Below, piece by piece: positions 2,574 to 64,000 of a stretch of DNA of 64,000 bases. Source of the DNA: Phycisphaerae bacterium RAS2 (GTDB lineage Bacteria; Planctomycetota; Phycisphaerae; UBA1845; UTPLA1); contig CP036352.1 in the NCBI GenBank assembly GCA_007753915.1, positions 2,108,001 to 2,172,000 on the forward strand, given 5' to 3'. The position numbers were made by a program, and so were the translations under genes. The stretch's first letter is position 1. Each line of letters starts with the position of its first letter. A model generated the notes under the pieces. That model did no database searches. It was given only the letters and a program-made list of their open reading frames with translations, and had not been told where the DNA came from.

Positions 2574-4181
2574 TCAAGGAAGTTGGCAATCGGGCCGCGG
2601 GGCGGCCAAAGCGGAATCGACCAATTCGGATAGATGAGCTTCTGGTGGGCTTGCCCCAAACCAGTGTTTCAACTGCAACGAGGCTTGCCGGGCAAAGAGA
2701 ACCCTCCCATCCATTGCTCGGCAACCCGCTCGTTTGGCGGCAGTGACGATCGGCGTTTCATCTGCAGAGTAGACCGTGTCCAGGACACGAACATCGGGCG
2801 AAAGGCGCTCTATCGGAAACGTCGTTTGGGTATCGTCATGCGGCCCATTCTTTCGCCCCATACCGATGCTCGTGCAGTTCACGAAGAGGTCGGCCGATTC
2901 GCTCAAAAGCCGATCCCACGGCCCCCACTTGCATTTGAGTTGCTCGGCGACTGTGCGTGCCCGGTCCATCGTTCGATTGAATACCGTCACATCGGCGCCG
3001 GATTCGTGCAACACTGCGGCGACGGTTCGACCCATTCCGCCCGCCCCGGCGACAGCCACCCGCCGCCCCGCCAACGATCCGCCCAACAGGTCAGTCGCGC
3101 ACTGCAGCACGGCTGGTCCGTCGGTGTTGGCGGCGCGCAGCATCCCATCCGCGTTCATGACAAACGTATTCACTGCGCCCCAGCGAACGTCGTCGTCGTC
3201 GATGGTCGCGCCGTTCTCACGCGCGAAACGCAGGGCATTCTCCTTGTGAGGGATCGTGATTGAAAACCCTCGCGCGTCCAGCCACGGCCGAGCCAGCACT
3301 TCCACCATGAATGCCTTGAAGGACTCGTATCCCTCCGCCACGCGAAATGGAAGATAGATCGCGTCCACCGACAGGCTCTCGTACGCGGCATTGTGAACAC
3401 TCGGACCGATGGAATGCGACACCGGGTCGCCGATCAATCCACAGACGCGAGTCGCGGGGCCGATGCGATCCCAGCGATAGCGCCGGCGCATCTCGGCGAT
3501 CGTGAGCTGGCCCGGCGCGGACTCGCCGCCCGCTTCAACTGCGGTGAACGACCCGAATGCGCCAAACTTTTTCACCAGCACGCGCGATGGCAGACCATCC
3601 TCGCCCATGCAGATCGCCAGCATCGGTCGGGGCGCGCCGCGCAACAGATCGAACGCCTCGAAGTTGTCGCGAACGGTCCTCACGCGCCAGGCCATCTTCG
3701 GAACATCACACGCTGCTTCAGAAAGCATCCCAAGCAGATCTGCCTGCATCGTCCGCGGCCGACCCGACGTGTCATGCCGCGAAAGGATCAGCCGCCGCGT
3801 CGAATCGGTTGGCGGCGCTCCCTCGACGCCACGCCCCAGCGCGAGCATGACTTTCTGACGCAGATTGGCCGACCGCTGCCACGACGCCCATTCGATGTCG
3901 AGGTAATCCGCCGCTCCGCCGAGGGCAATCAATCGGCTCATGCGATCCATGTCGCTGCCGTCCCAATGCCCGCCTTCGGCCGTGGAACGCAGCGTGAGGA
4001 GAACCGGGACCTTCGCCGCGGCGGCGATGTCGCGCAACGCGGGCACGTCGGCATCGGCGACGCCCTCCATTATGTCCAGCCGCAATTCGATCATCGTCGC
4101 GCCTTCGGCGAGCGCGCGGCGAATCTGTTCGGCGGCAGCCGGCGATGTGTCCGTGATGATTGAAGCGATGAGATGCGTCAT
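2574..4181 (-). CDS. aroDE: Bifunctional 3-dehydroquinate dehydratase / shikimate dehydrogenase
   Basis: A 535-residue fusion covering steps three and four of the shikimate pathway. Residues 1 to about 235 form a type I dehydroquinase (MTHLIASI start, EGATMIELRLD, LILSRHD, a Schiff-base lysine region later). From about residue 245 a shikimate dehydrogenase begins (VCGLIGDPVSHSIGPSVHNAAY), with substrate-binding TIPHKENAL, NTDG, and an NADP-binding glycine loop VAGAGGMGRTVA followed by FNRTMDRA. Such fusions are known in plants, Chlamydiae and Planctomycetes; other bacteria usually have separate genes. Downstream on the same strand lie the phosphoesterase and aroK, so this is an aromatic amino acid locus. 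Confidence 0.93.
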   Translation of the reverse strand: MTHLIASIITDTSPAAAEQIRRALAEGATMIELRLDIMEGVADADVPALRDIAAAAKVPVLLTLRSTAEGGHWDGSDMDRMSRLIALGGAADYLDIEWASWQRSANLRQKVMLALGRGVEGAPPTDSTRRLILSRHDTSGRPRTMQADLLGMLSEAACDVPKMAWRVRTVRDNFEAFDLLRGAPRPMLAICMGEDGLPSRVLVKKFGAFGSFTAVEAGGESAPGQLTIAEMRRRYRWDRIGPATRVCGLIGDPVSHSIGPSVHNAAYESLSVDAIYLPFRVAEGYESFKAFMVEVLARPWLDARGFSITIPHKENALRFARENGATIDDDDVRWGAVNTFVMNADGMLRAANTDGPAVLQCATDLLGGSLAGRRVAVAGAGGMGRTVAAVLHESGADVTVFNRTMDRARTVAEQLKCKWGPWDRLLSESADLFVNCTSIGMGRKNGPHDDTQTTFPIERLSPDVRVLDTVYSADETPIVTAAKRAGCRAMDGRVLFARQASLQLKHWFGASPPEAHLSELVDSALAAPRPDCQLP

Positions 4182-30061: not shown

Positions 30062-30431
30062 CCTTGTTTGCGTCTCGCATCGGAATCATCGCATGCAAGC
30101 GCGATTGCGGAAGTCGAATCGCGCGGCGTGATCGGCGGGAAGCAGGTACGACCGGAGCATGATAGTGCGGAACGGAGTGCGCCGCTATGGCATTGAACCG
30201 AACAATGCTGGAGCGTCCGGTGCGCGGGAATGCGCAATTCAATATGCGACCGCGCAATCAACGGAGAGGGAGGGATTCGTTCTACCCCGATTCCTCAAAC
30301 TCTTCCAAACGCTCACTTTATCGCCCAACTTGCGAAACGACAACGACTTCGCTCGTCTCGCAGACATCCTGTTCCTCCACGGTTTTTTACTGTCTCGTGA
30401 CGCGTTTTGAGGGCAGTTTGAGGGCAGTTTT
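30062..30431. other. Probable left junction of the mobile island
   Basis: 370 bases between the desaturase and the replication-like gene. On the minus strand, 30261-30279 reads CGAATCCCTCCCTCTCCGT, matching the T-loop to acceptor end expected of a tRNA-Ser (acceptor strand CCTCTCC, discriminator G), without the rest of a tRNA. A short minus-strand frame of 42 codons (30367 to 30239) has GGAGG 6 bases upstream. Two copies of TTTGAGGGCAG lie at about 30406-30428. These fit an integration boundary but do not prove one. Confidence 0.4.
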
Positions 30432-31745
30432 TCATGCGACCACTCGGTGCGGTTCTAGCACGATGTTGTGTTGTCGTGTGGTTGCGAACTCCGCTGGCTT
30501 TCCTAGCGACCTCTCGATGATTGCCCGAATTGCAACCGGCTCAGTTGAATCGGTGAGTGATTGTTCTCGCTTGCTCAGGATTGTCTGTCCCACGTTATCG
30601 CCATTGCGAATCGCAGGCCGTTGCATCGCGAGCCATCGCAGCCGCCTTCGAGCAGCATCCTCGTCTCCCTGCGTTGCAAATTGCCAGAGCCTCCGACGAA
30701 CAACCGTCACAAAGAGCCCGCACGGATTCCGCGTACCGATTGTCTTGGCGTGCTCCGCCGCCGCGAAGAAGCGAAGCCGATCACACTCAGAGGTGCTCAC
30801 GAGCCTCGCGATGACTGCCTGTCTAAAAAGCTCCAGGAGCCGCGTTGGATCTCGGAGGTCCTCAGCCACCACGTGCCGAAGCGTCGGTTGTGTTCCCCTT
30901 CCATTTTGTTTGAAAACACCAGCCGGCCCGTGCGCGGGTTTCTGGTGTTGATCAAATCTCGAAGAGAGTTTCTTGTCTTTATAAGGGGGTGCTGATCCGG
31001 TGGTGGAAAACGCCGGAGGGGGTGATCGTTTGCCATCCAGACTCTTGTCATTTCTCGACCACTCAAGGTTGATTCGCATGCGCTGACCGAACCTGTTGAG
31101 GTAGGTTTGACCGCAGACGACCGGCAGTAGCCAACCGATGCTCACAAGATGTTGCCGAGCCGACTTGACGTTGCGAAGGCTCACGCCAAAAACCTCCGTA
31201 ATCCACGAAGCCTTGCATGACCCCTCCGGTTCGCAGCGACCGTTTCGGTAGTAGAGGCAGCGAAGGAGGTGTCCCAAGATGGTTGCAATCACCACGCGCC
31301 TCGCACCGCCCGCGATCAGGCGGACGATGCGACGCGGCACCGGCACCAGCCGCCGATGATTAGCGACATGCTCGCACATTCGGTCATAATCTGGATCAAC
31401 CAGCGAATCGTCACACTTCGGCACCGTGATGCACGATTCGCCCCAGATGACAAGCCTCGATTTTTCGAGCCGACGCACCGCGTGGCGAAGGTGCTCGCCT
31501 CCTGCCCCGCCGACCAGTGACCGAATTTCATCGATGCGGTATTTCGGACGAATGCCCTTTGTAGCCACGCAGCGCCTCGCCACAAGCTCAAGGCATGCAA
31601 ACCATACCCGGAGGTCTAACAAGTGAAGATCGCCTCGCCTATAAGCCGCCCAGGCCCTTGAAAGTAATGTTCCAGAGACCAGGCAGAATCCGCCAGCCGG
31701 TTTTCGCGGTGAGGCATCCCCTGCCCCGCTTAATTTTGATTCCAT
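30432..31745 (-). CDS. Putative replication-initiator-like winged-helix protein
   Basis: A 437-residue basic protein from ATG 31745, chosen because GAGGG lies 5 bases upstream. The N-terminal 220 residues look like tandem winged-helix domains (LRVWFACLELVARRC, IDEIRSLVGGAGGEHLRHAVRRLEKSRLVIWG, WITEVFGVSLRNVKSARQHL), the layout of plasmid Rep proteins and replication-associated regulators. The C-terminal part is Arg-rich with no clear domain. The divergent partition genes about 590 bases away support a replicon role. No exact family was recognised, so a transcription regulator is possible. Confidence 0.5.
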   Translation of the reverse strand: MESKLSGAGDASPRKPAGGFCLVSGTLLSRAWAAYRRGDLHLLDLRVWFACLELVARRCVATKGIRPKYRIDEIRSLVGGAGGEHLRHAVRRLEKSRLVIWGESCITVPKCDDSLVDPDYDRMCEHVANHRRLVPVPRRIVRLIAGGARRVVIATILGHLLRCLYYRNGRCEPEGSCKASWITEVFGVSLRNVKSARQHLVSIGWLLPVVCGQTYLNRFGQRMRINLEWSRNDKSLDGKRSPPPAFSTTGSAPPYKDKKLSSRFDQHQKPAHGPAGVFKQNGRGTQPTLRHVVAEDLRDPTRLLELFRQAVIARLVSTSECDRLRFFAAAEHAKTIGTRNPCGLFVTVVRRRLWQFATQGDEDAARRRLRWLAMQRPAIRNGDNVGQTILSKREQSLTDSTEPVAIRAIIERSLGKPAEFATTRQHNIVLEPHRVVA

Positions 31746-31858
31746 GAGTTCCCTCGTTTGATACACGGAGAGCGTTTGCCCGAGATTCCGGGCGGCGTGA
31801 GGTACACGACATCGATGCAGCGATGAGAAAACTCTTGACGGAGTCGAAGGGCGCGGGC

Positions 31859-31956: not shown

Positions 31957-32120
31957 TTTTTGGTGTTCGCGCTACGTCATACGCTCTCCTGCGATTGCAC
32001 GGCGCCGGGCGGGAACAATTTCCCGCCCCTTCCGCCGATCATCCCAGCTCTTGCACGCCTGCAACTGCCTGACAAGACACAATCTTCTGCATGCACTACC
32101 GAATCCCCGCATGCCGGAAT

Positions 32121-32312
32121 GCGGGGATTCAGGAATGCGGGAGTTCGCGCACGCGGGCACCCAGGATTGCAGGCATGCGGGAGCGATTCCGCCAGAAAAT
32201 ACCATCTTGTTCAAATACTTGATTCATGATGGAACGAAGGAATGCGGGCGCGCGGGCGTTCGGGCAGGCCCGAACGCGGGCCAGCAGCCATGCGGGCATT
32301 CCTGCAGGCGGG
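32121..32312. repeat. Phased GCGGG repeats upstream of parA (candidate centromere)
   Basis: GCGGG or GCAGG units start at 32121, 32137, 32153, 32169 and 32177, then at 32244, 32252, 32264, 32276, 32292, 32304 and 32308. Most intervals are 8, 16 or 24 bases. The two clusters flank a 62-base AT-richer stretch that could hold the par promoter. Ribbon-helix-helix partition proteins bind short repeats at similar spacing upstream of their operon, so this is a candidate centromere/operator. Confidence 0.55.
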
Positions 32313-32334
32313 ATAGGAAGCAGTGGAGGCAAGC

Positions 32335-33237
32335 ATGACGAATTCAAATCAACAGGGCGTGGCGATCGCCGTGGGAAACCAGAAGGGCGGTGTAGGGAAG
32401 ACCACCAACACCGTTCACATTGCCGCGGCACTTGGACAACAGGGATTTCACTGCCTGATCATGGACCTCGATCCTGCGGCAGGGGCGACGAAGCACTTGG
32501 GCATTCCCGTCAATAGTTTCGCAGGGGCACTGGAGCTTCTCACCACCGATGAGACGGTGGAGACTCTCGCCATTGCCGAAAACATGCCGCAAAACGTACA
32601 TCTTGTTCCATCGAGGCCCCAGCTCAGCGAAATCGACAACCTCGTTTCCAAGTACGTGGATCGCACCCGGATTCTTGAACGTCCCATCGAGCAGGCGAGG
32701 GCGAAGTACGACTTCATTTTCCTTGACACCGGACCATCGGCCGCTTTCACCACCACCGTCGCGGCCTACTCGACCGCCGAATGGTTCTTGCTATCGGCCT
32801 TTCCGCATCCGCTTTCACTCGGCGGATTGACCGAGGCCTTCAACGACATCGCCGACGTTCGCAAGCATCGCAACCCCGGCCTGGAGGTTTTGGGCGTTGT
32901 GTTCACCAATGTCGATCGGCGGGCCACGAAACTTCGCGCTCAACTGGAGGACGTGGTGAATGAGGCACTTCCCGGGCGGCGCTTCGACACATCGATCTCG
33001 CAGGCCGTGATCCTTCCCGATGCCTCGGGACGCGGAAAGACGCTCTTTCAGTTTCCCAAGTTCGAGAACATTCCAGTTGCTCAGCAATATCTGCGGCTCT
33101 CGATAGAGGTCGAACACCGCGTGCGACATCGGGAGGAGTTTCTGCAGGGCATGCTGGGGGCTCCGCCCTTCGCCGCTTTCGACATGCCCGACAGCGAGGC
33201 CGAGCAGGTCGCACCGGCATTGGCAGCCAACGAATAG
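32335..33237 (+). CDS. parA: ParA-type partition ATPase
   Basis: A 300-residue deviant Walker ATPase. Residues 14-23 are KGGVGKTTNT in the context AVGNQKGGVGKTTN, then DLDPAAGATKHLG (Walker A-prime) and FIFLDTGPS (Walker B). Start at ATG 32335 with GGAGG 5 bases upstream; the in-frame GTG at 32323 lacks a ribosome site. There is no N-terminal HTH, so it resembles the short ParF/ParA-Ib type that pairs with a small ribbon-helix-helix protein, and such a gene follows 10 bases later. It would segregate the extrachromosomal form of the island. Confidence 0.9.
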   Translation: MTNSNQQGVAIAVGNQKGGVGKTTNTVHIAAALGQQGFHCLIMDLDPAAGATKHLGIPVNSFAGALELLTTDETVETLAIAENMPQNVHLVPSRPQLSEIDNLVSKYVDRTRILERPIEQARAKYDFIFLDTGPSAAFTTTVAAYSTAEWFLLSAFPHPLSLGGLTEAFNDIADVRKHRNPGLEVLGVVFTNVDRRATKLRAQLEDVVNEALPGRRFDTSISQAVILPDASGRGKTLFQFPKFENIPVAQQYLRLSIEVEHRVRHREEFLQGMLGAPPFAAFDMPDSEAEQVAPALAANE

Positions 33238-33247
33238 GTGAGGGGAT

Positions 33248-33736
33248 ATGGCCAAACCGCTCCGCACATTGCCCCCTTCATCATCCATCGCGAGGCTCTT
33301 CGACCTCGACGCCGCCGCACGAGCCGTCGCAGCGCCGGTCGTGACGCGAGAGACGACGGACAGCCAACCAGCGCAACAACCAGAGCCAGTCCTGTCAGCC
33401 AGAATTTCCGCCAGCCCGGCTCCAGCGATCGCTACTCGACACATCAAGCGCGAATTCGTATTCACGCCCGCATCGGAGGCCACCTTCTCGCAACTCGTCG
33501 AGATCTACCGGCGAAGCACGGGAACAAAGCTCACCGCGAGTCACGTCGCCCGTGCTTTGATGAAGGGCGTCGCTCACTGCATGGAGTACCTCGAAAAGGA
33601 AGCCAAGCGAATCGGACCGCTGAAATTGCCCTCCAATGCACGCGGAAAGGAGTTCGAGCGAGATCGCTTTGAGGCCCGAATCGCCGATGCCTTCATCACG
33701 GGTATCCGCTCCGCGCCCGCAATCGACCGTGAATGA
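33248..33736 (+). CDS. Putative ribbon-helix-helix partition partner (ParG/ParB-like)
   Basis: A 162-residue protein. The first 75 residues are low-complexity and probably flexible (rich in Ala, Pro, Ser). Residues about 80-125 read IKREFVFTPASEATFSQLVEI, a strand-helix layout that fits a ribbon-helix-helix DNA-binding dimer, then LTASHVARALMKG. A flexible tail before an RHH fold is the design of ParG, which stimulates its ParA through the tail. It sits 10 bases behind parA, and the phased repeats upstream of parA would be its binding site. The family assignment is inferred from layout, not a clear match. Confidence 0.6.
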   Translation: MAKPLRTLPPSSSIARLFDLDAAARAVAAPVVTRETTDSQPAQQPEPVLSARISASPAPAIATRHIKREFVFTPASEATFSQLVEIYRRSTGTKLTASHVARALMKGVAHCMEYLEKEAKRIGPLKLPSNARGKEFERDRFEARIADAFITGIRSAPAIDRE

Positions 33737-34050
33737 TTTCGGCCAACGCGCGGCATGCGCTTGATTCGAGATTCACCGGTCGTAATCTGTTGGGCATGAA
33801 TCCAAGCACACAGGCGCCATCGCCGTTTTTTCACTGGCTCTCCGTAAACCAGATACGTAAGATGCAGCGGATGCGCCGCCAGACTGTGATTCTTGCCATG
33901 GAATCCGGCGAGCTTCCGTTCGAGCGCCGTGGACGGATTCGCTACGCTCGGCTCGCCGACGTTCTCGCCTGGGAGGAACGCCGTCTTTCGCATCCCACAA
34001 CACTCAGCGCATTCCCTATCCATCCCGATCTCGCCGACCTTGCTGGATAG
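33733..34050 (+). CDS. Excisionase-like HTH DNA-binding protein
   Basis: A 105-residue protein whose ATG at 33733 overlaps the stop of the RHH gene (ATGA). Residues about 38-80 contain a MerR/excisionase-type HTH with wing: VNQIRKMQRMRRQTVILAMES, ELPFERRGRIRYARLADVLAWE. Such proteins direct integrase in excision or repress element genes. An internal ATG at 33796 (MNPSTQ) would give a shorter form covering the same domain. Being in the par operon suggests it controls element maintenance or excision. Confidence 0.6.
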   Translation: MISANARHALDSRFTGRNLLGMNPSTQAPSPFFHWLSVNQIRKMQRMRRQTVILAMESGELPFERRGRIRYARLADVLAWEERRLSHPTTLSAFPIHPDLADLAG

Positions 34051-34133
34051 CCGACACGCATCAACTCGCCGAAGACGCCCTCAACCTGCCCGCCATTTCT
34101 GCAATTCGTCTGGCGAAGCGGGCTTGATTGCGA

Positions 34134-34157
34134 TATAATTATCTAAAGAGGCGCTCG
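34134..34157 (+). promoter_or_regulatory. Promoter -10 and ribosome site of the toxin-antitoxin operon
   Basis: A perfect TATAAT (34134-34139) and GAGG (34147-34150) precede ATG 34158 by suitable distances in otherwise GC-rich DNA. No good -35 was found at 17 bases upstream. Confidence 0.5.
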
Positions 34158-34433
34158 ATGCAGATGCTAAGTTTCCCAGGACCCATTGAAGAGACGCTAA
34201 AAAAGGCGTTCGGGCAGGACCTCGACCAAGCCGCGCTGGAAGCGCTGGCGATCGAGGGCTATCGCTCCGCCAAACTCACCGCGGGCGAAGTAGCCAAGAT
34301 TCTGGGACTTGCAACCTCCATCGAGGCCGTCGATTGGCTTGGCCGTCACGGCGTCGCCCTTAACTATTCGCTCGAAGACCTGGAGCAGGACCGAGCGACC
34401 TTAGCGAAGCACTTCCCCGAGATGGCGCGATGA
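34158..34433 (+). CDS. UPF0175-family antitoxin
   Basis: About 91 residues from ATG 34158 (GAGG 6 bases upstream). The family core reads ALEGYRSAKLTAGEVAKILG-like (AIEGYRSAKLTAGEVAKIL) and LGRHGVALNYSLEDLEQD, a small DNA-binding fold of UPF0175 proteins. These are paired with DUF3368 PIN-like proteins as toxin-antitoxin systems. Its TGA overlaps the ATG of the toxin gene. In the island it would stabilise inheritance of the element. Confidence 0.85.
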   Translation: MQMLSFPGPIEETLKKAFGQDLDQAALEALAIEGYRSAKLTAGEVAKILGLATSIEAVDWLGRHGVALNYSLEDLEQDRATLAKHFPEMAR

Positions 34434-34918
34434 TCGTTGTGTCCGACGCGAGCCCGCTGAATGTGCTCGTTCGAATCGGATACATTGACACCCTTCCGAA
34501 GCTCTTTCAGGTTGTTTTCATTCCCCCCGCCGTCGCCGCAGAACTCACCCATGCCGGGACGCCCGAGCCCGTTCGAAGCTGGCTCGCCTCAAAGCCCTCG
34601 TGGCTGACGATCAAAGCACCGACCCGCATCGATGCCACGCTGGAATTCGACGACGCGGGAGAACGCGAAGCGATCAGTCTTGCCCTGGAGATCAAGGCTG
34701 ACCTCTTGCTCGCCGACGACCGCAAGGCCCGCAAGGCGGCGCTCGCCCGCGGCCTCGCCATCACCGGAGCGGTCGGCGTTCTCGAAGCCGCTTCCGCCAA
34801 GGGCCTTCTCGACCTTTCCGAAGCCTTCAAGCGACTCCGGACCACCGACTTCATCATCGCAGATAGCATTCTCGCCGAAGCGCTGCGGCGCGATGCCGCT
34901 CGAAAAGGCATCACTTAA
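34430..34918 (+). CDS. DUF3368 PIN-like toxin
   Basis: A 162-residue PIN-fold protein, predicted RNase. It opens IVVSDASPLNVLVRIG, where the Asp is the first acidic residue; acidic positions follow in DDAGEREAISLALE (Glu/Asp) and LLADDRKARKAA (Asp pair), giving the metal site of PIN nucleases. The start overlaps the antitoxin stop. The last about 205 coding bases and 62 bases beyond are duplicated at 45671-45930, where only the C-terminal third survives. Confidence 0.85.
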   Translation: MIVVSDASPLNVLVRIGYIDTLPKLFQVVFIPPAVAAELTHAGTPEPVRSWLASKPSWLTIKAPTRIDATLEFDDAGEREAISLALEIKADLLLADDRKARKAALARGLAITGAVGVLEAASAKGLLDLSEAFKRLRTTDFIIADSILAEALRRDAARKGIT

Positions 34919-53358: not shown

Positions 53359-54052
53359 ACTGACTGACCGCGACCGCCAAGTGCTTGGCCACATCGCCCG
53401 CTATCGCTTCACCTTCAAGGAGGTCCTAAGCAGCCTCTACTTTGATGGAGCCGACCCCCAAAAGAGCCTGGACCGACTCCGGGACGATGGTTACGTCGTC
53501 GCCCGAAAACTCTTCAAGGGAAACCGTAGTGCGTACCAGTTGGAGTCGAAGGGAGCTGCCGCCCTCGGCGTGAGCCGACGACGCGCGGAGGGTTTGGGCT
53601 CCGAGGCCCTGCCGACACATCTCGCGATCTTCTCATTCTGCCACCTGCAAGGCCGTCCTCGAATTCGACTCGAAGACGACGAGGTCGCCTCCGTATTTGA
53701 AGACAATGCCCCGCCCGGCCGTTATCACTGCCTTGAACGCAGCACACGGGCGGTACGAGTGCATCACGTGTATGTACCCGGTGACGCCACCAAGCCCGCT
53801 GATGTCGTGGCGATGACCCGATCCCATATCGCCGAAGTAATCCAGACACCGGGGATGCTCCCTTGGCTCGCCAATCAGGTTTATTCGCACGCCATTCTGG
53901 TCGAGTCGAATGAGCGGAGGGAATTGCTGACCAAGGCGATTAACGGCACGAAATTTGATGACCGAATCCAGCTTCGCGAGGTTGCCCACGTCCGCGTCGA
54001 GTGTGTACCGGGGTTTGCCAATTTGGAAGAGGGGTTGCATGCGTTGGCTTAA
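53345..54052 (+). CDS. Replication-relaxation-type winged-helix protein 2
   Basis: A 235-residue product, start overlapping the preceding gene. It opens LTDRDRQVLGHIARYRFTF and KSLDRLRDDGYVVARKLF, again a winged helix of the replication-relaxation type, followed by AYQLESKGAAALGVS. The second half is unlike protein 1. Its own 3' end overlaps the start of the ATPase gene by 14 bases. The three genes form a tightly packed transfer operon. Confidence 0.7.
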   Translation: MSFGKLTDRDRQVLGHIARYRFTFKEVLSSLYFDGADPQKSLDRLRDDGYVVARKLFKGNRSAYQLESKGAAALGVSRRRAEGLGSEALPTHLAIFSFCHLQGRPRIRLEDDEVASVFEDNAPPGRYHCLERSTRAVRVHHVYVPGDATKPADVVAMTRSHIAEVIQTPGMLPWLANQVYSHAILVESNERRELLTKAINGTKFDDRIQLREVAHVRVECVPGFANLEEGLHALA

Positions 54053-56186
54053 GAAACCCAGGACCATCGACCTCAAGCCGTTCGAGAACTATCTCGCCGC
54101 GCAGCCGCAATTGAGTTTGCCGGCGACGCTGGACCCCACCGGCCCGGCACTCCTATGGACGAAGCCATTGGATATCCGACTCAGCCGGATCGACCTGGAA
54201 GCAGTGTGGCGACGGCTTGGCGACAGGGCGTGGGAGATTCTGCAGCGACGCCGGATGAAGGAGATTTTCCATCGTGAGCCACCGAGTGAATTCGCTCGGT
54301 ACTTGGCCACCTTGCATCGGTCCAGCCCCGAGTACCGCGAAGAGATCTTTGTCGGGCTTCGCCATCCGAAAGAAGAGCCACTCTTTGTGCCCCGTGACGT
54401 TTTCAAGAACCACGCTTACATCTTGGGGGGTTCCGGCTCGGGGAAAACATCCCATGCCCTCGCGCAGTTGATCGTGCAATTAGCCGAGGGCTACATCGAC
54501 CAGGAGGGAAACACGCACGCGCCGCCGCCGATTCTCATTGTGGACCTCAAGCAAAACGGGGACCGATATCTTCGCTGTCTGGCTCAACAAATTGCAGAGG
54601 CGAGGGGACAACCCCTGCGATTCTTTTCGGTGGACCCGGAGTATCAGAGCCTGAATTTTGATCCGTTCTACTGTATTCGATCGGTCGCGTATCCGCTCAA
54701 GCGCAGCGAGTTGTTTCTTAAGGCGCTGTCGATGATTTACCCGGAAGGGTACGGCTCAGATTTTTTTACCGATGAGCAGCGGACGCAGCTCAACGAAATC
54801 CTGTATCACGACCGGCCCACGACGATGAATGAGATGATCGCCTTCATCCGTCATGCCACCACCGGCAAGTCGGGCAACAAGGACGCCCGCGGACTTTATT
54901 CGGCGCTTCAGGCGCTGGAGTACGCCAAAAACGTACACACCGACGGAGCGCCCATCGGACGCGACCAGCTCATAGACTTTGACCGGTTTTACGAAGAGTC
55001 CGAAGTGCTCTACGTCCACTTGGATTCTCGCGCGCTGTCACTCTTATCGGCGGACGTGGGAAAGCTCATTTTGTTCTGCCTCCTGGAAACCGCCTCGCGA
55101 CGTGAAAAGGAGGGCAGAAAGACGCAGTGCTTTGTGGCCGTGGATGAGTTTCACCGGCTCGCCGCGCGCAATGTTGTCGAGATGCTGGAGGATGCCCGTT
55201 CCGCGGGCGTGGGCTTCATTCTCGCCCACCAATCTTCCAGCTCCATGAAGACGCGCGAAGCCGACCTGTACGGCAGCGTCTTTGAGAACACCAGTTTCAA
55301 GCAATGCCTCACACTAGAAGATCCGCGAGTCATCGAACTGTTCTCCCTGATTTCCGGCCGGACAACAGAGCGAAGGCTGGGCGGCTCGACTTCAGAGTCG
55401 ACCTCCAAGGGAACGACGACTTCTCATTCGAGCAGTCACGGAACATCGCATGGGGAATCGACGACCTCGCCAGGTGGTCCATTAGCCTACGCTACAAACA
55501 CGACAAGCGATTCAACCAGCAGCAGCTCAGGTTCAAGTTCGGGTACGGCGGAGTCAAAGTCCACGTCTGAGACAAAGTCTTGGCAGGAGGAAAAACTTCC
55601 AGCGCTTACGCCCGAAATGATCACAATCGTAAACGACACCAATCTCATGTCGCTTATGCACGTCAAAGGAACGGGTGGCCGATGCCTCACCCCAACGGGC
55701 GGCGTGCCGCTGCTCGTTCAAGGGCTCTACCCATTCGTCAAGCCGGTGGCCGATGAGATGGGTGAGGAGTTGTGGCCGCTCCGCAAGATTGACGACTCGG
55801 AATGGTATTTTCAGGAAGCCCGGCCATCCCTGCCGAAACGCCTTTCTGGCGACAAGAAATCGCGGCCAAGCGCCGGCGGCAGTCCGCAAGGACAGGCGGG
55901 CGCCTCCAGGCCTTCGCGATTCACTGGGGCAAACGATGGCGACCGCCGAAAACTGGAGGCGCGGGTTCGAGAGTTGGCAGAACGACTTTCAACGGAAATG
56001 CTCGAAGAGCCGATGAACGTCCGAGACTTTTCGCGAGTCTGCCAGGTGCCGATCAAGATGGTTGTGGAGGCGGGGGCGGCCGTCGGCTTGGACCTATCCG
56101 CGCGGCAGAATGAACTTTCACCCACCGAAGTGCGACGACTCAAGCGATCGCTAGCCGCCCGGAAACCCCGCGAAGAGGGGGCGTAA
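54039..56186 (+). CDS. TraG/VirD4-like conjugative coupling ATPase
   Basis: About 715 residues from ATG 54039 (GAGGGG 4 bases upstream). P-loop GGSGSGKTS at about 130-138, Walker B CFVAVDEFHRLA near 364-375, then AHQSSSSMKTREADLYGS as in TraM-recognition domains of coupling proteins. Residues about 450-515 are an unusual Ser/Thr/Gly-rich linker. No N-terminal membrane helices, unlike classical VirD4, so it may be a soluble coupling protein or an AAA-type pump of a reduced system. Residues 640-715 hold a charged region and a small helical domain (RELAERLSTEMLEEPMNVRD). Confidence 0.78.
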   Translation: MRWLKKPRTIDLKPFENYLAAQPQLSLPATLDPTGPALLWTKPLDIRLSRIDLEAVWRRLGDRAWEILQRRRMKEIFHREPPSEFARYLATLHRSSPEYREEIFVGLRHPKEEPLFVPRDVFKNHAYILGGSGSGKTSHALAQLIVQLAEGYIDQEGNTHAPPPILIVDLKQNGDRYLRCLAQQIAEARGQPLRFFSVDPEYQSLNFDPFYCIRSVAYPLKRSELFLKALSMIYPEGYGSDFFTDEQRTQLNEILYHDRPTTMNEMIAFIRHATTGKSGNKDARGLYSALQALEYAKNVHTDGAPIGRDQLIDFDRFYEESEVLYVHLDSRALSLLSADVGKLILFCLLETASRREKEGRKTQCFVAVDEFHRLAARNVVEMLEDARSAGVGFILAHQSSSSMKTREADLYGSVFENTSFKQCLTLEDPRVIELFSLISGRTTERRLGGSTSESTSKGTTTSHSSSHGTSHGESTTSPGGPLAYATNTTSDSTSSSSGSSSGTAESKSTSETKSWQEEKLPALTPEMITIVNDTNLMSLMHVKGTGGRCLTPTGGVPLLVQGLYPFVKPVADEMGEELWPLRKIDDSEWYFQEARPSLPKRLSGDKKSRPSAGGSPQGQAGASRPSRFTGANDGDRRKLEARVRELAERLSTEMLEEPMNVRDFSRVCQVPIKMVVEAGAAVGLDLSARQNELSPTEVRRLKRSLAARKPREEGA

Positions 56187-59899: not shown

Positions 59900-60214
59900 A
59901 TGGAGATTGTCGCACTGCTCTTGGCGACCCTCACTGCGGGCTGGGCCATATTTGTTTGGTACAGACCATCACCCGCCAATGCAGCATCGTGCTGCGTCTT
60001 CGTCTCGGATCACGCGGGAGCCCCGAAGCGTGTTGTGTTGGTTGGCCCTCGCGGAGAGGAAGCACGTACGGATAGCCGCGGCATCGGGCGCATTCCTCGG
60101 AACTGGCTCGGCTTTAGCGTCTCAGTGCGAAGACTGGATGACTTCCGCGAGGTAGTCGAGATCGAACTCCCACCCGTTTCTCGTACAACGATAAAAATTC
60201 TGGTGAGCGAATGA
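59900..60214 (+). CDS. Small membrane-anchored protein, first gene of the Argonaute operon
   Basis: A 104-residue product from ATG 59900. One N-terminal membrane helix (MEIVALLLATLTAGWAIFVW), then a small domain with possible beta strands (SCCVFVSDHAGAPKRVVLVG, IGRIPRNWLGFSVSVRRL, REVVEIELPPVSRTTIKIL) that may be an Ig-like or carboxypeptidase-regulatory-like sandwich. Its TGA overlaps the ATG of the HTH-TIR-APAZ gene. Such a gene is not part of described SPARTA pairs. It could anchor the complex, sense an invader, or be an immunity partner; this is inference. Confidence 0.6.
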   Translation: MEIVALLLATLTAGWAIFVWYRPSPANAASCCVFVSDHAGAPKRVVLVGPRGEEARTDSRGIGRIPRNWLGFSVSVRRLDDFREVVEIELPPVSRTTIKILVSE

Positions 60215-61986
60215 ACGAACCGGCGCCCAATTCCGCTGTTGCACTGGCAATCGGGATCGCTGACCTCGTCAACCGAGAGGGACTTAGTCAGAGCGAGATT
60301 GCCAAAGCCACGGGCGTTTCGCAGCCCCTTGTATCCAAGTTGCTCTCGGGTGATTACGGAAAACTGCGGCCGAATACCCTGCTCAAGTTGGAGTCGTTTA
60401 AGCGGCTTACCAAGGAGGAGCGTCAACGAATCGTAAACGCAACGCGGACGCGCGATGTCTTTCTTTCTCATCGATCCGCTGATAGTGAGTTTGTTAAGAA
60501 ACTTGCCGCCGACATCGAGGCCACTGATATCGACCGGCGGCGTTTCACGGTTTGGATCGACGAGGCCGAGATAAAAGCTGGGCAGAGCATTCCCGGGGCG
60601 ATTACGCATGGCCTGGAAACAAGTCGGCTTTTTGCGATTGTGATGACACCGGCGTATTTCCGGAGCGAGAGCGGTTGGACAGATGCGGAATGGCATGCGC
60701 TTTTGCACACTGACCCGGATAACCGACGACGGAAAATCATCCCGTTGCTCGCTGCGGATTGTCCATACATTCCGTTCCTGCTGCGGCATCTTCATGCAAT
60801 CGACATGCGCGGCAACCGCTACAAAGCCGGGCTTGATAAACTCATAGCTATACTTGCAGATCAACCCTACGCGCCGCCGGTGGTACATCGGGGGCAGCTC
60901 ATCGCGGGGAGTGGCCGAATCGATCGCAGCACTCTCGTGGCTGAGCGCAGTATTCCAGAAGCCGCCCCGGATCCCGTTCAGGAATCGCTGTATTGCAACC
61001 TCCTTCCTATCGACCGACTCCCACAGTACGTGTACATGGCTCCTATCGCCAAGTCGCTTCGCAGCCCGAGCGGTGCCTTGCCGAGAAAAGAAAAACTCAA
61101 AGAGATAATTCGGTCTGAGCAAAGCGATAACGAGCGACCAATCGTGCCGGCGTTTCGAATTGTTGGTGAGCAGGTTGTTTCGTTCCACGACCTTGAGACC
61201 GCGGAGTCGTTTCTTGCCCCGATTGTTGATGAGAACGCGACCGTATCTCCTGTCGAAGAGTTTGCCCGAGAGGAGGAAGGGAGAAAGATCATCGTTTCTT
61301 TGCTCCACATGGCAATTTCTCGTTATGCAATCCGTTTCGTCGGCGAGGGCACGCTAATCAGTGACGAGTCGAAGCTGCACCGCTATTTCTTTGGACCCCG
61401 CGACGGTAAGGACAACACGATTGAGTGGCGGCCTGTGAAAAACAAGACAACTAGAACGGTCGCTAAGGCGTGTACTCGAAACAGCCACGTAGAATTCTGG
61501 AGGCACCAAGCGGCATATCTGAAGGTCGTGTTTCTTGCGACGAAATTCTACCTTCACATTACCCCGACTTGGGTGCTAACCCGCGACGGCCGTTGCGTGA
61601 TTGCCGGTCCCAAGGTCGGTCGGATCGTTAGCAAATGGACCGCTCCCGAGCGAAACATGCAGGTGCTTTACCATGTGCGTTTTTGGACTTGGGCGCTCCG
61701 GCGCGGACGACCAGGCCCGATCTCAATTCGCGCTGGCGACCAGTGGATGGAGATTGCAACGGTTCCTGCATCAATCGTGCTGAATCACGGTATCGCCGAT
61801 GACCAGCGCGACCTAATGCGACTGCTAGATCTTGAGGCGGCGACGCTTGCCAGGACAGAAGAAGAGGCTGCCGATGCGGCTTCGGCGAGTGGGGAAGAAC
61901 TTGCGGAACTTCTAGATGACTTGGGGGTCGAAGCAGACGAAGATCTGGATTCCTTCGGGACGGAGGAGCCGAGCACTGATGCATAG
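60211..61986 (+). CDS. HTH-TIR-APAZ protein, NADase effector of a SPARTA system
   Basis: A 591-residue protein. Residues about 19-60 are an XRE-like HTH (LSQSEIAKATGVSQPLVSKL). Residues about 82-220 are a TIR domain: DVFLSHRSADSEFVKKLA, FTVWIDEAEIKAG, then SGWTDAEW with the catalytic Glu at about 160. Residues about 225-540 form an APAZ domain (YCNLLPIDRLPQYVYM, FRIVGEQVVSFHDLE, YLHITPTWVLTRDG). A very acidic tail (about 550-591) ends the chain. In SPARTA the TIR-APAZ protein binds a short Argonaute and, on guide-target recognition, degrades NAD(P). The HTH fusion makes it about 70 residues longer than usual. Stop overlaps the Argonaute start. Confidence 0.9.
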   Translation: MNEPAPNSAVALAIGIADLVNREGLSQSEIAKATGVSQPLVSKLLSGDYGKLRPNTLLKLESFKRLTKEERQRIVNATRTRDVFLSHRSADSEFVKKLAADIEATDIDRRRFTVWIDEAEIKAGQSIPGAITHGLETSRLFAIVMTPAYFRSESGWTDAEWHALLHTDPDNRRRKIIPLLAADCPYIPFLLRHLHAIDMRGNRYKAGLDKLIAILADQPYAPPVVHRGQLIAGSGRIDRSTLVAERSIPEAAPDPVQESLYCNLLPIDRLPQYVYMAPIAKSLRSPSGALPRKEKLKEIIRSEQSDNERPIVPAFRIVGEQVVSFHDLETAESFLAPIVDENATVSPVEEFAREEEGRKIIVSLLHMAISRYAIRFVGEGTLISDESKLHRYFFGPRDGKDNTIEWRPVKNKTTRTVAKACTRNSHVEFWRHQAAYLKVVFLATKFYLHITPTWVLTRDGRCVIAGPKVGRIVSKWTAPERNMQVLYHVRFWTWALRRGRPGPISIRAGDQWMEIATVPASIVLNHGIADDQRDLMRLLDLEAATLARTEEEAADAASASGEELAELLDDLGVEADEDLDSFGTEEPSTDA

Positions 61987-63556
61987 TATGCGCTTGCACA
62001 CAGCCCGACGACCCCATTTTCAGTCAGGCATGCTTTCGGAGCCACTGATTGCTGTGGGCGGTCACCATTTGCACGTGGACCCCAAGACGGGTCTTGGTCT
62101 TTATGGCCCCTATTGTCCGACTGGACAGACACGCCCGCCTTTATCCACGATCATCGTTGGTATCGTTGGTCCACCTGGCATGGCGGCCGATGCAACAAAA
62201 TGGCTCGAAGCGTGCCAAAACGTACTCTTAAACGATGGACGTGAGCCTCTTCAGCACCCCCACTTTCCAGGATTTAATGCCGACCACCCGTTCCAGTGTG
62301 ACCTTGTCTTCGGCGACACATGGCGCCACCACTTAAAGAATGACGAGATTGCTGCCGCACTTTCCGAGACTAATTTCTACGAGAGAATTCGACGCATCGT
62401 AGGAGCCTATGTTCAAGGAATCGAGGTCCTCGCTCAACGCGACCCAAAGCCAAACGTTGTGCTGTGTTGTGTTTCCCAGGACGTGATCGATCTTTGCGGA
62501 GTGCGTCCTGCGGGTGCTGGCCAGTTCAAGAGAATTAAGGTGAGCAAATCGGAGCGCGAGGCAATGAAGGATGTCGAATCAGGTCAGGGATTTCTCTTCG
62601 CCGGCATGGATCCGAGCCTTGGCATTGAAGACCAACAACTTGGTCACCAAAACCTCCGTCGCGGTCTCAAAGCGGAAGCCATGCAATACGGAATACCCAC
62701 TCAACTTGTTTGGCCGCGGTCGCTCGACCTGGAGGACTGCGACCCGAAGCCAGGAGAGCGCCGCGTTCAAGACAGAGCGACACGTGCATGGAACTTGACG
62801 ACGGCGCTTTATCATAAGGCAGGGGGTTCACCCTGGCGGCTTGCTCACATCGACCCAACCGTGTGCTTCATCGGAATATCCTTTTACAAAGAGGTCAGAG
62901 AGCGCAATCCACGACTTCGTACCAGTATGGCCCAGGCGTTTACAGCCGCAGGAGATGGGTACGTGCTTCGAGGGAATTCTTTTGAGTGGGACGAGGTGAC
63001 GTACGGTCGGTCTCCGCATCTTGATGCGAGATCTGCGACAGCACTTCTTGCAGACGTGATTGAGCTATACAAAAAGCAAAACGAAGGGAGTCTCCCAAGC
63101 CGGATTGTTGTTCACAAGACTTCGCGCTTTTGGGAGGAGGAGCTAGAAGGGTTTCGAGATGCTTGCGGCATGATCCCCAAAAGTGATTTCGTCGCCTTCG
63201 GATGGCGGGGAATTCAGTTCTATCGCGCCGCTGGAGACTATCCGCCGCTTCGCGGCACGTACATTAAATTCACTGAAACGGATCTTGCATTATATACGGT
63301 GGGCTATATTCCATTTTTGGGAACATATCCTGGTGCGCGTGTTCCAAGACCGCTTGAGATTCTTGAGCATCACGGCGATAGCGGCTGGGATACCACTCTC
63401 CGAGAAATTCTCGCTTTGACGAAAATGAATTGGAACACGGCTGATTTTGCATGTAGTGAACCAATTACCGTCGCCTTTGCAAGGCGTGTCGGTCACATAC
63501 TTGCCGAATTGCCAGCACAATTACCGCTTCAAAACGAGTATCGGTACTACATGTGA
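61979..63556 (+). CDS. Short prokaryotic Argonaute (MID-PIWI), SPARTA type
   Basis: A 525-residue protein; ATG 61979 overlaps the previous stop by 8 bases (an upstream frame to 61916 is inside the TIR-APAZ gene). It lacks N and PAZ domains. The N-terminal segment (VDPKTGLGLYGPY) is typical of short pAgos. The MID domain covers about 130-290 (RRGLKAEAMQYGIPTQLVW), with the Lys and Gln used for guide 5'-phosphate. PIWI covers about 290-525. Catalytic residues are lost: VCFIGISFYKE has Ser (about 301) for Asp, and IVVHKTSRF has Lys for Asp. It would bind a guide and target but not cut, signalling through the TIR partner. Confidence 0.92.
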   Translation: MHSMRLHTARRPHFQSGMLSEPLIAVGGHHLHVDPKTGLGLYGPYCPTGQTRPPLSTIIVGIVGPPGMAADATKWLEACQNVLLNDGREPLQHPHFPGFNADHPFQCDLVFGDTWRHHLKNDEIAAALSETNFYERIRRIVGAYVQGIEVLAQRDPKPNVVLCCVSQDVIDLCGVRPAGAGQFKRIKVSKSEREAMKDVESGQGFLFAGMDPSLGIEDQQLGHQNLRRGLKAEAMQYGIPTQLVWPRSLDLEDCDPKPGERRVQDRATRAWNLTTALYHKAGGSPWRLAHIDPTVCFIGISFYKEVRERNPRLRTSMAQAFTAAGDGYVLRGNSFEWDEVTYGRSPHLDARSATALLADVIELYKKQNEGSLPSRIVVHKTSRFWEEELEGFRDACGMIPKSDFVAFGWRGIQFYRAAGDYPPLRGTYIKFTETDLALYTVGYIPFLGTYPGARVPRPLEILEHHGDSGWDTTLREILALTKMNWNTADFACSEPITVAFARRVGHILAELPAQLPLQNEYRYYM

Positions 63557-63756: not shown

Positions 63757-64000
63757 ATGAGCGACGAGATCGCCCTCGCATCACGGAAGCAGCTTGGCCG
63801 CATCGGGCTTGAGTCGCTTCCGTCCATCATCGCCCAAGCCGGTGAGCGTGCCGGCCGCCGCTTCATAGAGTTCTTCACCGCGAACATCAGAAACCGTAAC
63901 ACGAGGCTAGCGTACGCCCGTGCCGTTGCCGAGTTCTTCAACTGGTGCGACGCCCGAGGACTCCGGCTCGAAACCACCGAGCCGATCATCATCGCCGCGT
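63757..64000 (+). CDS. Tyrosine recombinase/integrase, N-terminal part
   Basis: The first 81 residues, cut by the window edge. It opens MSDEIALASRKQLGR and has FFTANIRNRNTRLAYARAVA, EFFNWCDARGL, the SAM-like core-binding domain of phage-type integrases and XerC/D relatives. The catalytic R-H-R-Y domain is off window. It starts 20 bases after the tRNA-like end, the usual place for the integrase gene of an element. Its ribosome site AGGGAG is very close to the ATG. Confidence 0.75.
   Translation, partial: MSDEIALASRKQLGRIGLESLPSIIAQAGERAGRRFIEFFTANIRNRNTRLAYARAVAEFFNWCDARGLRLETTEPIIIAA

What the first reader, a model, noticed from the sequence alone, without database searches (positions are those of the whole stretch)
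32121..32312. GCGGG repeats phased at 8 bp before a ParA/RHH pair
Twelve GCGGG/GCAGG units have intervals mostly of 8, 16 or 24 bases in two blocks around an AT-richer gap. Type Ib partition proteins (ParF/ParG-like) bind short repeats with such spacing. This would be a new centromere type in Planctomycetota.
Basis: partly seen in the sequence, partly recalled or inferred. Interest (0 to 1): 0.6.

Follow-up and report, generated by a model that had tools for sequence, protein, structure and literature searches.

The report
8-bp repeat array beside partition genes
A stretch of DNA just before a pair of plasmid-type partition genes repeats every eight bases, and many relatives, including some cyanobacterial plasmids, keep the eight-base beat although the letters differ, which points to a docking site for the partner DNA-binding protein that helps a mobile element be inherited.

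Summary
The phasing is real and stronger than reported. Two blocks (32101-32184, 32240-32313) form an 8-bp lattice with an almost invariant G at phase 0 and C at phase 5 (G-N4-C, a dyad); 0 of 5000 shuffles reach it. The blocks flank a 55-bp gap and are 3 bp out of register. Four related loci keep both blocks without indels, and the two lattice bases never change while others do (p=0.0002, 0.0022). Upstream of 38 related parA genes, 28 exceed the 99th percentile of 4726 control windows; of 25 other ParA-family genes, none does. Seven of 7 further relatives do, but only 3 of 12 distant ones. Box letters differ between lineages; Nostoc and Leptolyngbya plasmids show the same beat. A Rep-like gene is near 33 of 38 loci. 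Best reading: tandem operator/centromere for the 162-residue protein, working like type Ib (RHH) partition, in a mobile element. The RHH fold is not confirmed (the models assign no strand, no library matches), and binding is untested. Not confined to Planctomycetota. New variant of a known kind.

The parts
32101..32184 (.). Array block 1: 8-bp units, G at 32101+8k, C at 32106+8k (GNNNNCNN)
   Evidence: alignment with relatives
32185..32239 (.). AT-richer gap between the blocks; probable parA promoter region (inferred; no sigma-70-type match found)
   Evidence: sequence; promoter scan negative
32240..32313 (.). Array block 2: same lattice, shifted 3 bp mod 8 relative to block 1
32101..32130 (.). 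Inverted pair of units at the start of block 1 (12-bp arms GAATCCCCGCAT / ATGCGGGGATTC)
   Evidence: (pair I1), read from the sequence
32335..33237 (+). ParA-type Walker ATPase (300 aa)
   Evidence: Pfam AAA_31 9.3e-33; PHROG 164 ParA-like partition protein 3.6e-40
33248..33736 (+). Candidate centromere-binding protein, 162 aa: low-confidence N-tail, then an extended stretch, two helices and two further helices
   Evidence: alignment; models; no credible family match
30432..31766 (-). Divergent Rep-like protein, 444 aa, conserved neighbour (named for its place only)
   Evidence: 33 of 38 loci; relative on Leptolyngbya pLBX, 33% over 373 columns, 6e-54; 7 plasmid records of three kinds of plasmid
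33733..34050 (+). HTH_17-like DNA-binding protein, recurrent neighbour
   Evidence: Pfam HTH_17 1.4e-4, below cut-off; ORFs of this cluster in 10 of 38 loci
30255..30430 (.). Probable left edge of acquired DNA: homology to a same-genus chromosome stops at 30279, and a stretch of about 170 bp here recurs in 6 of 7 relatives searched
63757..64000 (+). Start of a tyrosine recombinase gene that runs past the window end (to 64731 in window numbering)
   Evidence: PF00589 match at G000:C1:2172165-2172692; ORF

Best explanation
The tract is a tandem binding array for the 162-residue protein encoded just after parA. One symmetric dimer would read one 8-bp box through the dyad G-N4-C; dimers stack side by side at 8-bp steps over about 11 boxes in block 1 and about 9 in block 2. 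Bound protein would (a) repress the parA operon, whose promoter lies in or next to the gap between the blocks, and (b) form the nucleoprotein handle on which the ParA ATPase pulls, so that the element is segregated. It works like type Ib (ParA + RHH protein) partition. Shown here: the lattice, its conservation in relatives, the genes, the Rep-like neighbour, plasmid relatives. Inferred: RHH fold, binding, dimer stacking, promoter position, repression, segregation.
For: Lattice far beyond shuffles (0 of 5000), lattice bases invariant in four loci with no indels while block 1 identity falls to 62%. Period 8 is the best of periods 5-13 upstream of 33 of 38 parA relatives; 33, 28 and 20 of 38 exceed the 95th, 99th and 99.9th percentile of 4726 control windows from the same loci, against 2, 0 and 0 of 25 upstream regions of other ParA-family genes. 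Seven relatives outside the 38, found by ParA alone: 7 of 7 above the 99th percentile, though L156 nearly copies the host's second locus and L143 and L144 resemble each other. G-N4-C lattice score of 14 or more (of 18) in 19 of 23 loci of the IKRE group against 0.77% of 1827 controls. Same beat on Nostoc plasmids pNSMS102 and pNe_5 and Leptolyngbya pLBX, each with ParA plus a downstream small protein that aligns with the family. The small protein has a low-confidence tail and an ordered core of an extended stretch and helix-helix (mean pLDDT 94), the order described for type Ib binding proteins (PMC5016525, section 6 read). In pSM19035 at least four contiguous repeats are needed for ParA activation (PMC9499535, passages).
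Against: No library recognises an RHH fold and DSSP assigns no strand to either model. Phasing fades in the distant tail: 3 of 12 above the 99th percentile; 5 of 38 in the main set have another best period and 10 of 38 are below the 99th percentile. Related plasmids pISOP01, pPSMK1 and pPla133_1 lack the 8-bp beat. The Nostoc plasmids gave no match to the Rep-like protein. Box similarity follows beta-strand similarity (r=0.39) but not once ParA identity is allowed for (partial r=0.004, p=0.47). No consensus promoter was found in the gap. No binding or stability data exist.
Confidence: 0.72

Rival explanations
1. Operator only: the array is a multi-site operator by which the small protein autoregulates parA and perhaps the divergent Rep-like gene; the centromere lies elsewhere, or the module no longer segregates anything because the element is integrated.
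For: The array sits between the Rep-like and parA starts, next to parA; the carrier is a 4.3-Mb contig, where partition of the element is not needed while it is integrated.
Against: About 20 boxes seem more than repression needs (inference); the lattice bases are conserved in four genomes of three genera of one family; in known type Ib systems operator and centromere are the same kind of site.
Confidence: 0.14
2. Replication iterons: the phased boxes are bound by the divergent Rep-like protein as part of an origin.
For: Rep-like gene near 33 of 38 loci and on three kinds of plasmid (7 records).
Against: The array abuts parA and begins about 330 bp from the Rep-like start; 8-bp close packing fits RHH-type stacking better than helix-turn-helix iterons (recalled); the beat is also on Nostoc plasmids, where no Rep-like match was found.
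Confidence: 0.08
3. RNA element: the inverted units form hairpins in a leader RNA (attenuator or small RNA).
For: RNA folding of 32093-32334 is stronger than shuffles, z -4.39.
Against: A dyad lattice gives hairpins as a by-product; no Rfam match; what is constant is spacing and two bases per box without indels; block 1 would lie upstream of a promoter in the gap.
Confidence: 0.03
4. Chance or a dispersed genomic repeat.
For: The words AATGCGGG and CATGCGGG are not enriched in the window as a whole.
Against: 0 of 5000 shuffles; no second copy in the host genome by BLAST; conserved in position before parA in relatives.
Confidence: 0.02

Closest known systems
pSM19035 delta/omega (type Ib), parS heptads
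   Same: Walker ParA plus small DNA-binding protein with flexible N-tail; 7-10 contiguous short units over the promoters, in both orientations; array is operator and centromere
   Different: 7-bp WATCACW units against 8-bp G-N4-C units; genes are transcribed separately there; no sequence match of the small protein to solved structures
TP228 ParF/ParG, parH and OF
   Same: ATPase and small binding protein, site upstream of the genes, degenerate boxes with spacers
   Different: Tetramer boxes with AT-rich spacers; the 162-aa protein has two further C-terminal helices in the model and no match to a ParG model in Pfam
Myxococcus plasmid pMF1 par, iteron AGATGTCT
   Same: ParA with a ParB that had no GenBank similarity, 8-bp imperfect-palindrome units, autorepression, footprint (abstract and sections 6 and 9)
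   Different: Iterons are few at the par genes and scattered over part of the plasmid; extra ParC; head-to-tail 8-bp phasing is not described in the sections read
R1 parC (type II)
   Same: Two repeat blocks flanking the par promoter, RHH protein with a helical cap (passages)
   Different: ParM motor (recalled as actin-like) and 10-bp class repeats; here the motor is a Walker ATPase
MetJ met-box operator (recalled)
   Same: Tandem 8-bp pseudo-palindromes, each read by a symmetric RHH dimer (recalled)
   Different: Metabolic repressor, no partition

Membership tests
Type Ib plasmid partition (ParF/ParG, delta/omega) | Walker-type ParA ATPase | tested here: met
   AAA_31 9.3e-33, PHROG 164, PDB relatives Soj, delta, ParF
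Type Ib plasmid partition (ParF/ParG, delta/omega) | Small binding-protein gene directly downstream of parA | tested here: met
   33248-33736; a downstream small protein was aligned for 36 of the 38 loci (G556 had none, G600b repeats G600a). That it binds DNA is not tested
Type Ib plasmid partition (ParF/ParG, delta/omega) | Binding protein is RHH | tested here: inconclusive
   extended stretch then helix-helix, mean pLDDT 94, but no strand assigned by DSSP in the monomer; no Foldseek, Pfam or PDB-sequence match
Type Ib plasmid partition (ParF/ParG, delta/omega) | Flexible N-terminal tail carrying an arginine finger | tested here: inconclusive
   residues 1-60 have low pLDDT; an arginine stands in the tail motif (ARLLD-like) in 29 of 36 rows, counted by eye; its role was not tested
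Type Ib plasmid partition (ParF/ParG, delta/omega) | Array of short direct and inverted repeats upstream of the operon | tested here: met
Type Ib plasmid partition (ParF/ParG, delta/omega) | Binding protein represses the operon and stabilises a plasmid through the array | not testable with these tools
   needs bench work
Plasmid replication-partition module | Neighbouring rep gene, presence on real plasmids | tested here: inconclusive
   Rep-like neighbour in 33 of 38 loci; Rep-like, ParA and small protein together on Leptolyngbya pLBX; Rep-like and ParA on pPSMK1 and pPla133_1. Not found for the Nostoc plasmids. That the Rep-like protein starts replication is not tested; Pfam gives at most a weak HTH

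The most novel reading that the evidence does not exclude
A so far unnamed family of centromere-binding proteins, shared by Planctomycetota chromosome-borne elements and cyanobacterial plasmids, reads centromeres defined by a fixed 8-bp dyad lattice whose letters drift from lineage to lineage while the beat stays; a few members (Phycisphaera mikurensis pPSMK1, G530) appear to have moved to a 7-bp beat, so the family could show how box length and sequence evolve with the protein.
Probability: 0.45. Interest if true: 0.66.

Novelty: new variant of a known kind. Interest (0 to 1): 0.52.

Why it matters
If true, it gives a natural set of some 38 phased loci (28 of 38, 7 of 7 and 3 of 12 above the 99th percentile, near copies included) in which spacing is kept and letters change: a direct way to learn how a tandem operator and its protein evolve together and how several partition systems share one cell. 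It also gives Planctomycetota a candidate rep-par module for vectors.

Tried and rejected
Co-variation of box and beta-strand: the Nostoc plasmids and G610/G577 share the strand letters REKRVLLT and similar boxes, which looked like a code, but over 36 loci the Mantel test gave r=0.39 overall and partial r=0.004 (p=0.47) once ParA identity was allowed for, so it is not claimed. Dyad symmetry of each locus's own consensus: 7 of 28 loci at p<0.05, mean z 1.27; the window's own was p=0.081. The dyad claim rests on the two invariant bases and the IKRE group test.

Fold searches of the full and core models gave no RHH match; a monomer model of a dimeric ribbon is a poor query, so this is inconclusive. 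PDB sequence searches with A1 and A3 gave nothing credible. Pfam on 36 members and on 8 proteins, 6 of them from plasmids, gave no RHH family. Viral contigs: no relative in two scans. The 162-aa protein found nothing in plasmids at 0.01, although the Nostoc one finds Leptolyngbya. Phage records gave ParA matches only below 60% identity, not followed up.

The longest direct repeat between the two presumed element ends was 14 bases, so att sites are not established. Comparison with same-genus G295 suggests that the left edge is also an inversion breakpoint; the element's extent is therefore uncertain. Isosphaera pISOP01 (5-bp repeats), pPSMK1 (period 7) and pPla133_1 (palindromes, no phasing) do not share the 8-bp beat. 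An earlier count said period 8 was best in 34 of 38; the recount is 33 of 38.

Full report
Observation. One search finds twelve GCRGG words at 32121-32308. Phase is perfect in block 1 and mixed (multiples of 4) in block 2. Read as an 8-bp lattice the pattern is cleaner: in block 1 (32101-32184) G stands at phase 0 in 11 of 11 units and C at phase 5 in 10 of 10; in block 2 (32240-32313) in 9 of 10 and 9 of 9. The self-match sum at lags 8 to 40 is 2.32 against 1.33 (sd 0.07) in shuffles, 0 of 5000 reaching it. G-N4-C is its own reverse complement, which fits the inverted pair of units at the start of block 1 and the raised self-match at lags 4 and 12. The blocks are 3 bp out of register and flank a gap (32185-32239). 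BLAST finds no second copy in the 4,324,589-base host contig.

Genes. 32335-33237 is a ParA-type ATPase. 33248-33736 has no credible family in Pfam, PHROGs or NCBIfam. Its alignment over 36 loci shows a tail with an SSxARLLD-like motif, the stretch IKREFVLTP, then TGTRLxxSHVxRALL and a C-terminal PSNA...FE. AlphaFold2 gives an ordered core with mean pLDDT 94: an extended stretch, then helices 14-31, 37-50, 52-62 and 75-95 of the core; DSSP assigns no strand, as it would not in a monomer if the strand pairs between subunits (inference). This is the order of a ribbon-helix-helix domain plus two more helices. Foldseek and sequence searches of solved structures do not recognise it, so RHH remains an inference.

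Relatives. A ParA search of 397 genomes of the class gave matches in 40 at E 1e-40 or better, in 52 rows. I analysed 38 rows first, chosen by similarity and length of flank, then 12 of the other 14; the remaining two rows are one interrupted gene (G456), examined as L165. Some loci are near copies (G600a/b, G453/G480, G000a/G333, G559a/G514), so counts are not fully independent. The best period among 5-13 is 8 in 33 of 38 (exceptions G420a, G270, G461, G298, G095). Against 4726 control windows from the same loci, which are mostly coding, 33, 28 and 20 of 38 exceed the 95th, 99th and 99.9th percentiles; upstream regions of 25 other ParA-family genes give 2, 0 and 0. In the 12 distant rows (39-44% identical to the window's ParA) the numbers are 5, 3 and 2 of 12, and G530 has a period-7 value of 4.2.

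A separate genome scan by ParA alone returned 37 loci. Most are contigs already in the set. Seven full relatives were not among the 38: L141, L143, L144, L150, L156, L161, L165. All 7 exceed the 99th percentile (values 3.1, 9.7, 9.6, 11.8, 2.9, 4.3, 4.3); L156 is almost identical upstream to the host's own second copy, and L143 and L144 resemble each other. Of the five loci with 31-32% identity, four were tested and none passes; the partial L170 gives 0.4; L168, L172 and L173 were not tested.

Conservation inside the lattice. The tract aligned with G333, G396 and G464a has no gap inside either block. Variability by phase is 0.25.30.23.18, 0.28.10 in block 1 and 0.05.22.22.06, 0.06.06 in block 2; permutation p is 0.0002 and 0.0022. 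Among 23 loci with the IKRE-type strand the G-to-C offset of 5 is best or tied in 19 (25% of 1827 control windows), strictly best in 12 (5.6% of controls), and the lattice score reaches 14 of 18 in 19 (0.77% of controls). In G348b, G600a, G438 and G270 another offset is best.

Other letters, same beat. G577 and G610 repeat GTCGCGA/GACGCGA-like boxes (values 12.7 and 9.5), and G403, G350 and G378 others. On plasmids, Nostoc pNe_5 (8.1) and pNSMS102 (4.0) have CGCGATAA-like boxes and Leptolyngbya pLBX (5.6) CCTACATG-like boxes, each with ParA and a small downstream protein that aligns with the family. The percentiles come from Planctomycetota loci and were not redone for these AT-richer plasmids. 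Isosphaera pISOP01 and pPla133_1 lack the beat. Phycisphaera mikurensis pPSMK1 shows period 7 (5.8), while its small protein is related to the family (hhalign probability 97).

Neighbourhood. A divergent 444-residue protein lies near 33 of 38 loci, usually about 1.9 kb before parA and 5.8 kb in G270. A relative lies divergent from parA on pLBX (33% identity); others lie on pPSMK1 and on the Pla133/Pla86 plasmids, divergent from the annotated ParA in the two regions viewed. I call it Rep-like for this place only; Pfam gives at most a weak HTH for its relatives and nothing for the window's own. In the window the module begins where homology with a same-genus chromosome stops (30279), at a stretch of about 170 bp that recurs in 6 of 7 relatives searched. 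Downstream lie a MerR regulator and efflux genes, a TraD/TraG-like coupling protein (53955-56183), a TIR-HTH protein and a weak Piwi match, and a tyrosine recombinase across the window end. I take this as an integrated mobile element; its ends were not established.

Mechanism. The reading that fits most is a type Ib-like partition site: symmetric dimers stacked at 8-bp steps, operator and centromere in one, as described for omega (section 6 of PMC5016525 read; passages of PMC9499535) and, with tetramer boxes, for ParG (passages of PMC7308502). Two blocks around the promoter recall R1 parC (passages of PMC5016525). An 8-bp imperfect palindrome bound by a ParB without known relatives was reported for pMF1 (abstract, sections 6 and 9 of PMC3235114). 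MetJ boxes are recalled. Binding, repression and segregation are untested.

Novelty. Seven literature searches, seen as listings of at most 20 papers each, showed no paper on a partition site of this kind in Planctomycetota; the library lacks most subscription journals. The kind is known; the 8-bp lattice, a protein family without a name in the three libraries searched, and its spread over two phyla make it a new variant.

Noticed in passing
window 60211-63553: TIR-domain protein with HTH followed by an overlapping gene with a weak, below-cut-off Piwi match; resembles a TIR plus short Argonaute defence pair.
   Followed up: no
window 53955-56183: TraD/TraG-like coupling protein; similar genes recur near 11-12 of the 38 par loci with two small neighbours, which suggests conjugative or mobilisable elements (the link of the window's copy to that cluster was judged by eye).
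   Followed up: partly
L121 / L175 (Phycisphaera mikurensis pPSMK1): Two stretches upstream of parA with a 7-bp period while the small protein is related to the 8-bp family; no control distribution for period 7 was computed.
   Followed up: partly
L174 (pPla133_1), 2668-3880: Several GAGACTATAGTCTC-like palindromes between parA and the Rep-like gene; another type of site with a different-looking small protein.
   Followed up: no
G000:C1 1946017 and 2138279: Comparison with same-genus G295 suggests an inversion with breakpoints near a recombinase gene and at the left edge of the par element.
   Followed up: partly
L141, L156 (contigs titled Nitrospira sp. CR1.3): Two par loci whose ParA is 74% and 66% like the window's, one almost identical upstream to the host's second copy, in a genome labelled Nitrospira; perhaps mis-binned contigs.
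   Followed up: no
window 34128-34918: UPF0175 protein followed by a protein with a below-cut-off DUF3368 match, a likely toxin-antitoxin pair next to the par module.
   Followed up: no
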